Positions 21,029 to 23,123 of a stretch of 64,000 bases of DNA are shown piece after piece (position 1 is the stretch's first letter; every line of letters starts with the position of its first letter). Source of the stretch: Halomonas sp. CUBES01 (lineage in GTDB: Bacteria; Pseudomonadota; Gammaproteobacteria; Pseudomonadales; Halomonadaceae); contig NZ_JAJLLW010000002.1 in assembly GCF_020991005.1 (NCBI RefSeq), positions 248,001-312,000 of the forward strand, in the 5' to 3' direction. The notes under the pieces were generated by a model. That model was not told the DNA's origin. It saw only the letters and a list, made by a program, of their open reading frames with translations, and made no database searches. The position numbers and the translations under genes were made by a program.

Positions 21029-21580
21029 ATGCAAGACACGCTGCATCTTCGGGCGCTGGAGCGCAGTGACCTGCGCTTTGTGCACGAGCTCAACAATAAT
21101 CAAAGCATCATGTCGTACTGGTTCGAGGAACCCTACGAATCCTTCGATGAGCTGGAAGAGCTTTACAATAAGCATATTCACGATAACGCCGAGCGCCGCT
21201 TTGTAGCCGAGGGGGCCAGCGCCAACCCCATTGGCCTGGTCGAGCTGATCGAGATAGATTACATCCACCGCAGCGCTGAGTTTCAGATCATCATCGCGCC
21301 GACCTATCAGGGAAAGGGGTTCGCGCGCACGCTGATCTACCAGGCACTGCACTACTCGTTCACCATTCTCAACCTGCACAAGGTATTCTTGATCGTGGCG
21401 GTAGAAAACGCCAAAGCCATTCATTTATATCAACAAAGCGGCTTTGTGGAGGAGGGGCATCTGGTTCAGGAGTTTTTCATCAATGGCCGTTACCGCGATG
21501 TGAAGCGCATGTATATCCTGCAGGATAATTTTCTGGCGACCTTGGCCGACACCGAACACTCGGAGCTCGCCGGGCTATAA
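21029..21580 (+). CDS. speG: Spermidine N1-acetyltransferase
   Basis: A 183-residue GNAT acetyltransferase. It has [35 protein letters not shown] and the acetyl-CoA loop [17 protein letters not shown], then [30 protein letters not shown], all matching SpeG. It acetylates spermidine and spermine to limit polyamine toxicity. Its transcript ends at the hairpin at 21594-21615, shared with the convergent micro-gene. Confidence 0.93.
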
Positions 21581-21593
21581 AAGGGCGATAAAA

Positions 21594-21615
21594 AAACGCC
21601 TCGAAAGAGGCGTTT
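21594..21615. terminator. Bidirectional terminator between speG and the 38-codon gene
   Basis: Perfect arms AAACGCCTC (21594-21602) and GAGGCGTTT (21607-21615) enclose a GAAA loop. An A-run precedes it, which gives a strong U-tract for the minus-strand transcript. The plus-strand tail is shorter. Confidence 0.9.
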
Positions 21616-21634: not shown

Positions 21635-21751
21635 CTAGCGAAGGTAGGCCGCAATGGCGTCGAATGCGGCGCGCTGTTGCTCGGCGCGTGCTGCCCATAC
21701 GTCGAGCACGTCAACGTCGGCGGCACGGCCCTGGCTGAATGATAACGACAT
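21635..21751 (-). CDS. Unrecognised small protein, 38 residues (micro-gene A)
   Basis: I do not recognise this protein. It begins MSLSFSQGRAADVDVLDVW and ends AAFDAIAAYLR. It has a strong ribosome site, AGGAG, eight bases before ATG, and a strong terminator just after the stop. A TATAAA element lies at 21785-21790 on the same strand. It is paralogous to the 45-residue protein at 22008-22145: after the shared VL-x2-W, 10 of the next 17 residues are identical. The conserved part could form one amphipathic helix. No signal peptide or membrane segment is present. Confidence 0.75.
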   Translation of the reverse strand: MSLSFSQGRAADVDVLDVWAARAEQQRAAFDAIAAYLR

Positions 21752-21963
21752 GGCGTCAACTCCTGGTGGGGAATGGAAACGGGTTTTATAGGGCAACCGC
21801 TTTGCTGCTAAGCAATATTGTTAGCGAGGAAACGATATTAGGCGGTTTTTCACCATCAAGCTAGTGCTTAAGAAGTAGTCTTTTGGATGACATTTGTAAG
21901 CTTAGGCTTACAAATTGGCGTTAAAACGCCTATGTGACTGAGTGAAAGAGGCTTTCTAACCAT

Positions 21964-21990
21964 GAAAAAGCCGAGCAACGGCCCGGCTTC
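21964..21990 (-). terminator. Terminator of micro-gene B
   Basis: Arms AGCCGAGC (21969-21976) and GCCCGGCT (21981-21988) pair with one wobble around a four-base loop. On the minus strand the stem is followed by TTTTTC, as in an intrinsic terminator. Confidence 0.8.
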
Positions 21991-22007
21991 GGTGACAATC
22001 ATTTCGT

Positions 22008-22145
22008 CTAACGAGATAAGCAATATGTCAGTGACTCACAGTACGCCGCAAGGGCGTCGCTCGCGGCGCGCTGCCAGTACGCTTGTTGCGTCCAGGCGTT
22101 AAGCACTTCGCTATTTCGTGTCGAGGATACATTGGATGAAGACAT
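22008..22145 (-). CDS. Unrecognised small protein, 45 residues (micro-gene B)
   Basis: I do not recognise this protein. It begins MSSSNVSSTRNSEVLNAW, continues QRAASDALAAYCESL, and shares its core with micro-gene A. The ribosome site AGGAGG lies eight bases before ATG. The leader CCCACTAGGAG resembles CCCACCAGGAG of micro-gene A. It has its own extended -10 promoter and its own terminator. A longer in-frame start at 22253 has no ribosome site and would include the promoter, so it is rejected. Confidence 0.75.
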   Translation of the reverse strand: MSSSNVSSTRNSEVLNAWTQQAYWQRAASDALAAYCESLTYCLSR

Positions 22146-22177
22146 GTGCGTGGCCCTCCTAGTGGGACTACGCAATG

Positions 22178-22207
22178 AGTATAGCAGTTTTTGTTGCAGT
22201 GCAGCAA
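22178..22207 (-). promoter_or_regulatory. Extended -10 promoter of micro-gene B
   Basis: On the minus strand TGCTATACT (22178-22186) is an extended -10 element, with TTGCTG 18 bases upstream (22202-22207). Transcription would start about 25 bases before the ribosome site. Confidence 0.65.
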
Positions 22208-22361: not shown

Positions 22362-23123
22362 ATGCGCTTGCGCGTTTTATCGGATCTGCATTTGGAGTTT
22401 TTTAACGGCGAGCGTGATTTACCGGACGTGGCGGCCGATGTCGTTATCCTTGCGGGGGATATTCATCGTCAGGTCGAGGGGCTGGCCTGGGCGCGTCAGC
22501 GCTTTCCCGCCACGCGGATCATTTACGTGCCCGGCAACCATGAATTTTATGGCACCTGCATGCCGCTGTGCCGTGAGGCGCTGGCTGCAAAGGCCGATCA
22601 GCACGACATCGAGCTTCTGGATAACCGCTACATAACCCTTGCTGGGGTGCGTTTCTATGGCACCACGCTGTGGACCGATTTTGCGCTTTACGCTGATAAC
22701 CCAGCTCACAACCCGCGAGAAACTGTGACGAAAGCGAAACGCTATATGCCGGATTTTCGCATTGTCGAATCTTCCCCCGGCATCACCCTGACCCCTGAGG
22801 CCAGTAGCGATCTGCACCAAGACGCTTTGCATTGGCTATCGGAGGCGCTTGCCGAACCGTTTGAGGGCCCCAAGGTGGTGATCAGCCACCATGCGCCAAT
22901 GCGTGACTGCATTCCCGATCAGTACAAGGGCGATGCACTATCGCCCGCCTTTGCCTCGCATTTACCGCAGTTGATGGGTCACATGGACCTGTGGATTCAT
23001 GGTCATGTCCATGAGCCGGTTGATCACTATCACCTAGGTACCCGAGTGGTGGCAAACCCCGGCGGCTACCCCGAGGAATTTGTACCACCGTTGTTTGAGC
23101 CTAGCCTGGTGATCGACGTCTAG
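22362..23123 (+). CDS. Calcineurin-type metallophosphoesterase
   Basis: A 253-residue phosphoesterase with the metal-binding motifs in order: LSDLHLEF (residues 6-13), LAGDIH, VPGNHEFY, ISHHAP and GHVHEPVDH. The two-metal active site is complete. The substrate is unknown; related proteins act on nucleotides or phosphodiesters. A strong ribosome site (CAGGAGGG) precedes ATG 22362. It ends with GGYPEEFVPPLFEPSLVIDV, common in this subfamily. Confidence 0.9.
   Translation: MRLRVLSDLHLEFFNGERDLPDVAADVVILAGDIHRQVEGLAWARQRFPATRIIYVPGNHEFYGTCMPLCREALAAKADQHDIELLDNRYITLAGVRFYGTTLWTDFALYADNPAHNPRETVTKAKRYMPDFRIVESSPGITLTPEASSDLHQDALHWLSEALAEPFEGPKVVISHHAPMRDCIPDQYKGDALSPAFASHLPQLMGHMDLWIHGHVHEPVDHYHLGTRVVANPGGYPEEFVPPLFEPSLVIDV

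What the first reader, a model, noticed from the sequence alone, without database searches (positions are those of the whole stretch)
21635..22145. Pair of paralogous micro-genes (38 and 45 codons), each with its own ribosome site and terminator
Two small minus-strand frames share VL-x2-W followed by a helical core, with 10 of the next 17 residues identical. Both have strong ribosome sites in near-identical leaders (CCCACCAGGAG, CCCACTAGGAG), and each is followed by an intrinsic terminator. One has an extended -10 promoter. Duplication with a kept protein core and separate expression signals argues for real, selected small proteins that ordinary gene callers would skip. I recognise no family.
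Basis: partly seen in the sequence, partly recalled or inferred. Interest (0 to 1): 0.75.

Follow-up and report, generated by a model that had tools for sequence, protein, structure and literature searches.

The report
Paired microproteins of bioplastic-storage regulon
Two tiny neighbouring genes in a salt-loving Halomonas relative make real, conserved proteins of about 40 residues that appear to be switched on with the coat proteins of the cell's bioplastic (PHA) granules, pointing to an undescribed family of very small storage-linked proteins.

Summary
Gene A (22008-22145, minus, 45 codons) and gene B (21635-21751, minus, 38 codons) are paralogues. At least one copy was found in 33 of 37 Vreelandella (ex-Halomonas) genomes, two of these only by weak hits. 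Substitutions are mostly synonymous (median dN/dS 0.23 for A, 0.19 for B). No family match above curated cut-offs.
All 27 A promoters examined carry an exact match to the footprint-derived PhaR operator TGCRNYGCASMA (0.2 expected from shuffles), as do 27 of 32 phasin promoters. A stricter pattern, chosen after seeing these, occurs at three places in this genome: before A and before two of three phasin genes. Seven of nine homologue loci away from the Vreelandella location have the operator. B has a degenerate operator here (clearer in most relatives) and a GacA-type box, found within one mismatch in 28 of 28 B leaders and in 0 of 27 A leaders.
Best reading: microgenes derepressed when PHA polymer forms, whose short helical proteins work at the granule. 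Coding status and, for A, PhaR-regulon membership are well supported by sequence; the granule role is inferred. They are not phasins by sequence.

The parts
22008..22145 (-). Gene A, 45-codon microprotein (VLNAW...QRAASDALAAY core)
   Evidence: 27 orthologous loci read; median dN/dS 0.23 over 77 pairs
22152..22160 (-). Ribosome site of A (AGGAGGGCC)
   Evidence: AGGAG in 27 of 27 A loci
22178..22183 (-). -10 box of A (TATACT, extended TGn here)
   Evidence: similar box in the aligned relatives
22191..22207 (-). PhaR-type operator of A (TTGCTGCACTGCAACAA); its TTGCTG (22202-22207) lies at -35 distance
   Evidence: exact PhaR consensus in 27 of 27 A promoters
21964..21990 (-). Terminator-like hairpin of A (imperfect stem, short T run)
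   Evidence: sequence; not found by the scan
21895..21912 (-). Palindrome TGTAAGCCTAAGCTTACA upstream of B, equal to the GacA activating sequence TGTAAG-N6-CTTACA
   Evidence: within 1 mismatch in 28 of 28 B leaders, best 3 or more mismatches in 27 of 27 A leaders; consensus read in PMC4950607 passages
21834..21842 (-). Likely -10 region of B (CCTAATATC)
   Evidence: conserved block in the B leader alignment; by eye, no promoter found by the scan
21802..21818 (-). Degenerate PhaR-type operator of B (ATATTGCTTAGCAGCAA)
   Evidence: 2 mismatches to consensus in this genome, at most 1 in 23 of 28 B loci
21757..21766 (-). Ribosome site of B (CCAGGAGTTG)
   Evidence: AGGAG in 22 of 28 B loci
21635..21751 (-). 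Gene B, 38-codon microprotein (VLDVW...QRAAFDAIAAYLR core)
   Evidence: 28 orthologous loci read; median dN/dS 0.19 over 78 pairs
21590..21615 (-). Intrinsic terminator-like hairpin of B

Best explanation
A and B are paralogous microproteins of the polyhydroxyalkanoate (PHA) storage programme of Halomonadaceae. Shown by sequence: both are conserved coding genes; A (clearly) and B (in most relatives, weakly here) carry the operator that also lies before phasin genes; B, not A, has a GacA-type box. Inferred from known PhaR biology: without polymer PhaR sits on the operator (over A's -35 position; downstream of B's likely -10) and blocks transcription; nascent PHA draws PhaR away, so A and B are made together with phasins. 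B is probably also activated by GacA. Inferred and least certain: each protein is a short helix with an invariant Trp that works at the granule surface, as a micro-phasin or as a partner of phasins, PHA synthase or depolymerase.
For: Coding: by place, 26 of 37 genus genomes keep the A-B tandem (hand count); start and ribosome site kept; median dN/dS 0.19 (B) and 0.23 (A). Operator: exact published PhaR consensus in 27 of 27 A promoters (0.2 in shuffles) and 27 of 32 phasin promoters (0.3 in shuffles). Own genome: exact TTGYTGCNNNGCANMAA only before A and two phasin genes, reversed-pattern control 0. In 41 genomes, of 81 distinct exact sites at least 37 lie before phasins and at least 9 before A/B; the control gave 13 hits. 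Away from the Vreelandella location, 7 of 9 homologue loci have an exact consensus, 6 of them 57-61 bp before the start, with neither neighbour found. PhaR is encoded. The one genus genome of 41 without PhaR and phasins (G009) has no A/B hit. GacA-type box: 28 of 28 B, 0 of 27 A.
Against: No sequence relation to phasins: hhalign probability below 2%, 6-11 columns. A's helix is amphipathic (1-2% of shuffles reach it), B's is not (27-62%). B's operator here has 2 mismatches, which chance gives often. G035 (99% complete) and the less complete G016 and G018 have PhaR and phasins but no A/B hit. 8 listed same-family genomes gave no hit. 35 of the 81 exact sites are not assigned to phasins or A/B. 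Of 9 outside loci, L201 and L202 lack the operator. PhaR controls more than PHA in rhizobia (PMC6201568, PMC12542648 passages), so regulon membership does not prove a granule role. The neighbouring genes scanned are not PHA-granule genes. No expression, binding or localisation data.
Confidence: 0.55

Rival explanations
1. A and B are PhaR-controlled but do not coat granules: they are small regulators that bind PhaR, the synthase, the depolymerase or another carbon-metabolism enzyme and tune flux when polymer is present.
For: Same operator evidence; no similarity to phasins; B is not clearly amphipathic; published PhaR regulons include genes outside PHA metabolism (passages).
Against: Phasins are the largest assigned group of shared targets in this genus (at least 37 of 81 sites). 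Nothing points to a specific partner.
Confidence: 0.3
2. The palindrome is the operator of another regulator, not PhaR; co-occurrence with phasins reflects that other regulator.
For: No binding was tested; no clear operator was seen before phaR itself; 35 of 81 exact sites are unassigned.
Against: The site equals footprinted or gel-shifted PhaR sites of two other genera (passages), lies before phasins, and PhaR is encoded in 40 of 41 genomes.
Confidence: 0.07
3. The transcripts act mainly as regulatory RNAs (like the PhaR-repressed sRNA mmgR of Sinorhizobium) and the frames are incidental.
For: Short units with terminator-like ends; a PhaR-repressed sRNA is known (passages); B has a GacA-type box as rsm RNAs do.
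Against: Synonymous bias and frame conservation; no Rfam match at gathering level; few GGA motifs near B's box.
Confidence: 0.03
4. They are small toxins or membrane peptides in a tandem (type I toxin-antitoxin-like).
For: Tandem small frames with separate control regions.
Against: The helical windows have mean Eisenberg hydrophobicity from -0.46 to 0.16, not transmembrane-like; no Rfam antitoxin RNA match; PhaR-type control.
Confidence: 0.02

Closest known systems
Phasins (Phasin_2, PF09361) of the same genomes
   Same: Share the PhaR-type operator and, by inference, induction by PHA; small proteins; a short local match FDAIAAY to LDAQKAY/LEAMKRY.
   Different: 38-45 aa against 118-136 aa in this genome; no significant profile similarity; no Pfam hit above cut-off.
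PhaR/AniA regulon (Bradyrhizobium, Sinorhizobium)
   Same: Operator matches TGCRNYGCASMA; a site overlapping the -35 is reported for phaP4 of Bradyrhizobium (PMC6201568 passages).
   Different: No relative of A or B is named in the passages read; control there was shown by experiment, here by sequence only.
MinP, a cut-down PHA-binding tag from phasin PhaF (PMC7267194 passages)
   Same: Shows that a shortened, largely amphipathic helical segment can hold a protein on PHA granules.
   Different: Engineered from PhaF; no sequence comparison was made here.
GacA-controlled promoters (rsmX/Y/Z)
   Same: B has TGTAAG-N6-CTTACA upstream.
   Different: B encodes a protein and the stretch after its box is not GGA-rich.

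Membership tests
PhaR regulon | PhaR operator in the promoter of A | tested here: met
   Exact in 27 of 27 A loci.
PhaR regulon | PhaR operator in the promoter of B | tested here: inconclusive
   23 of 28 B loci within 1 mismatch, but 2 mismatches in this genome, a level chance gives often.
PhaR regulon | PhaR encoded in the genome | tested here: met
   PF07879 at 96.7 bits; 40 of 41 genus genomes.
PhaR regulon | PhaR binds and represses the promoter | not testable with these tools
   Needs gel shift and a phaR deletion.
Phasins | Match to a phasin family model or profile | tested here: not met
   No Pfam hit above cut-off; hhalign probability below 2%.
Phasins | Amphipathic helix | tested here: inconclusive
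   A passes (1-2% of shuffles reach it), B does not (27-62%).
Phasins | Located on PHA granules | not testable with these tools
   No localisation data.
GacA-activated promoters (gene B) | TGTAAG-N6-CTTACA upstream | tested here: met
   Exact here, one of 5 sites in this genome, reversed-pattern control 0; within 1 mismatch in 28 of 28 B leaders, 16 exact.
GacA-activated promoters (gene B) | Loss of expression in a gacA mutant | not testable with these tools
   Needs experiment; presence of gacA itself was not tested.

The most novel reading that the evidence does not exclude
A and B are a new class of PHA-granule microproteins (about 4-5 kDa micro-phasins unrelated to the known phasin families), duplicated so that one copy answers to polymer alone through PhaR and the other to polymer plus the GacA signal.
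Probability: 0.4. Interest if true: 0.75.

Novelty: new variant of a known kind. Interest (0 to 1): 0.6.

Why it matters
Halomonas-type bacteria are used for PHA production. If right, their storage programme has two overlooked components, expressed with phasins and likely to affect granule number, size or turnover. The operator predicts the inducing condition, so function can be tested at once. It is also a worked case in which shared operators, rather than homology, assign a pathway to orphan microproteins. My literature searches listed no paper on these proteins, but the lists were capped and I saw only titles and abstract starts: searches (14 of 14; 10 of 21; 12 of 18; 15 of 104; 1 of 1; 8 of 336; 12 of 558), in an open-access library only.

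Tried and rejected
Phasin homology: rejected at the sequence level. Known RNA families at the locus: no match at gathering level, two chance-level ones. Divergent metallophosphoesterase as the true target of A's operator: rejected, because the operator keeps a fixed distance to A (-55 to -62 in 27 of 27), while that gene was not found within about 1.5 kb in 10 of the 27 A loci, and in none of nine loci outside. An Rsm-type sRNA between A and B: not seen; few GGA motifs near B's box. Operator before phaR: no clear site in the stretch looked at, where the start codon is uncertain. Relatives outside Halomonadaceae: weak hits in G051 (E 0.056), G045 (E 0.03) and G256 (E 0.005; inside a longer frame without operator), taken as chance. 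PHROGs and PADLOC were not searched. The script failed because loci were not turned to the match strand; redone.

Limits of the counts: one search lists only its first places (145 hits against 47 in the control). One search was given 81 sites, 65 of the 128 phasin places implied's table, and 16 A/B places, so 37 and 9 are lower bounds; distances run to the domain match, not the start codon. The pattern was chosen after seeing A and the phasin promoters of this genome and B of relatives. One search used 27 A loci (of the 30 loci fetched, three were dropped as B copies), 28 B loci (of the 29 genus loci, L031 was dropped as an A copy) and 32 phasin loci (30 of the best phasin per genome, plus the other two of this genome). 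The background comes from fetched loci that include true sites. One search used nine loci from seven genomes or records; one (L183) is named only Halomonas sp., one (L193) has no certain start, and for L191 I set the first ATG. Alignments A1, A2 and A3 hold 20, 19 and 31 chosen sequences. dN/dS medians use pairs with 0.1<pS<0.6 (78 of 378 B pairs, 77 of 351 A pairs); the pairs are not independent and many others are saturated.

Full report
The two frames are as described. On the minus strand, gene A (22008-22145) encodes 45 residues and gene B (21635-21751) encodes 38. Their cores align beyond chance: score 65, maximum of 2000 shuffles 45. They lie between a GNAT-type acetyltransferase (21029-21580, +) and a metallophosphoesterase (22362-23123, +); those two names are my reading of the translations.

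Both are real genes. B gave a hit in 30 of 37 genus genomes and A in 32 of 37 at E <= 0.1, this genome included; some hits are cross-hits between the copies. The union is 33 of 37, with G024 and G030 only weakly. By place, 26 genomes keep the two in tandem, a few hundred bases apart. In G002 the copies are far apart on one contig. The frame and start are kept, and AGGAG lies within 18 nt of the start in 27 of 27 A and 22 of 28 B loci. Substitutions are mostly synonymous: B of this genome against its closest relative found has dN/dS 0.12; medians over usable pairs are 0.19 (B) and 0.23 (A). Invariant across the 31 aligned members are W19 and A23 of B.

Outside the genus the family is thin. Of 390 genomes drawn from the order, 11 have hits: 6 of this genus, 4 of other genera of the family, 1 weak hit elsewhere; 8 listed genomes of the family had none. 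Named records include Aidingimonas and several Halomonas. There is no match above cut-off in Pfam or NCBIfam, none in PDB sequences at E <= 1, and none in Rfam at gathering level. Database homologues that bear a name are called hypothetical proteins.

The informative part is upstream. 27 of 27 A promoters have the palindrome TGCTGC-N3-GCARCA within 90 nt of the start, just before a TATACT-type -10, with little conserved further up. This looked like the operator of PhaR, the repressor that senses PHA polymer. A search of this genome with that pattern, one mismatch allowed, listed sites 83 and 151 bp before the domain matches of two of its three phasin genes (145 hits in all, control 47). The stricter TTGYTGCNNNGCANMAA, chosen after this, occurs exactly at three places: before A and before the same two phasin genes. 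The third phasin has a close variant, ATGTTGCACTGCACAAA.

I then used an independent, footprint-derived consensus from Bradyrhizobium, TGCRNYGCASMA (PMC6201568, abstract and passages). In the 200 nt upstream it is exact in 27 of 27 A loci (0.2 expected from dinucleotide shuffles) and in 27 of 32 phasin loci (0.3 expected). For B it is exact in 8 of 28 and within one mismatch in 23 of 28, against 1.6 expected. In this genome B's site has two mismatches and is not significant by itself. Sinorhizobium sites bound by PhaR in gel shifts look alike (PMC12542648 passages).

The operator follows the gene, not the place. In nine homologue loci away from the Vreelandella location, seven have an exact consensus, six of them 57-61 bp before the start; L201 and L202 have none. 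Neither Vreelandella neighbour was found in any of the nine. Across 41 genus genomes the strict pattern has 81 distinct sites (control 13 hits); at least 37 lie before phasins and at least 9 before A/B, 35 are unassigned. PhaR and phasins are each found in 40 of 41 genus genomes; the exception, G009, lacks both and has no A/B hit. The converse fails: G035, and the less complete G016 and G018, have PhaR and phasins but no A/B hit.

B has a second control element. TGTAAG-N6-CTTACA lies 144-161 bp before B's start. It equals the GacA activating sequence (PMC4950607 passages). Within 300 nt upstream it is exact in 16 of 28 B loci and within one mismatch in all 28, while the best in 27 A leaders has 3 or more mismatches. 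This genome has five exact sites, reversed-pattern control 0. In this genome and two relatives a TGTAAGAGATCTCTTACA box precedes, by about 170-180 nt, a GGA-rich stretch ending in a strong hairpin and T run, as in CsrB/RsmZ RNAs; three other loci with the same box did not show this. No Rfam family matched there. Whether gacA is encoded was not tested.

Mechanism. Step 1, shown by sequence: A and B are conserved coding genes. Step 2, strongly supported for A, and for B in most relatives: they belong to the PhaR regulon with phasins. Step 3, from published PhaR biology (PMC9049629 passages): PhaR leaves the operators when polymer appears, so both are induced with phasins; B would need GacA as well. 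Step 4, inferred: the proteins act at or near the granule. A shortened, largely amphipathic segment of a phasin is enough for granule binding (MinP, PMC7267194 passages). A's helix is amphipathic; B's is not by this measure. They fail the phasin membership test by sequence, so the claim is at most that they work like small granule proteins, not that they are phasins.

Noticed in passing
L223 (own genome C25:144200-146700, beside enolase), also L205 and L209: A GacA-type box TGTAAGAGATCTCTTACA is followed about 170-180 nt later by a GGA-rich stretch ending in a strong hairpin and T run, like a CsrB/RsmZ RNA; Rfam finds no family there. Three other loci with the same box (L206, L208, L212) did not show it.
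   Followed up: partly
L225/L203 (C3:4318, beside a DNA polymerase A gene), L222 (C25:65143), L224 (C26:239840): Three further GacA-type boxes in this genome with unidentified targets.
   Followed up: partly
G002, C1:247802 and C1:1920909: The A-B tandem is split: B lies near the metallophosphoesterase homologue and A near the acetyltransferase homologue.
   Followed up: no
L082 (own phaR, C26:155140): No clear PhaR-type operator was seen before phaR itself, although autoregulation is reported in other bacteria; the start codon is uncertain.
   Followed up: no
41 genus genomes, list: 35 of 81 exact operator-like sites are not assigned to a phasin or A/B place I supplied; several recur as TTGTTGCCRCGCATCAA-like sequences in different genomes and may be conserved coding sequence or further targets.
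   Followed up: no
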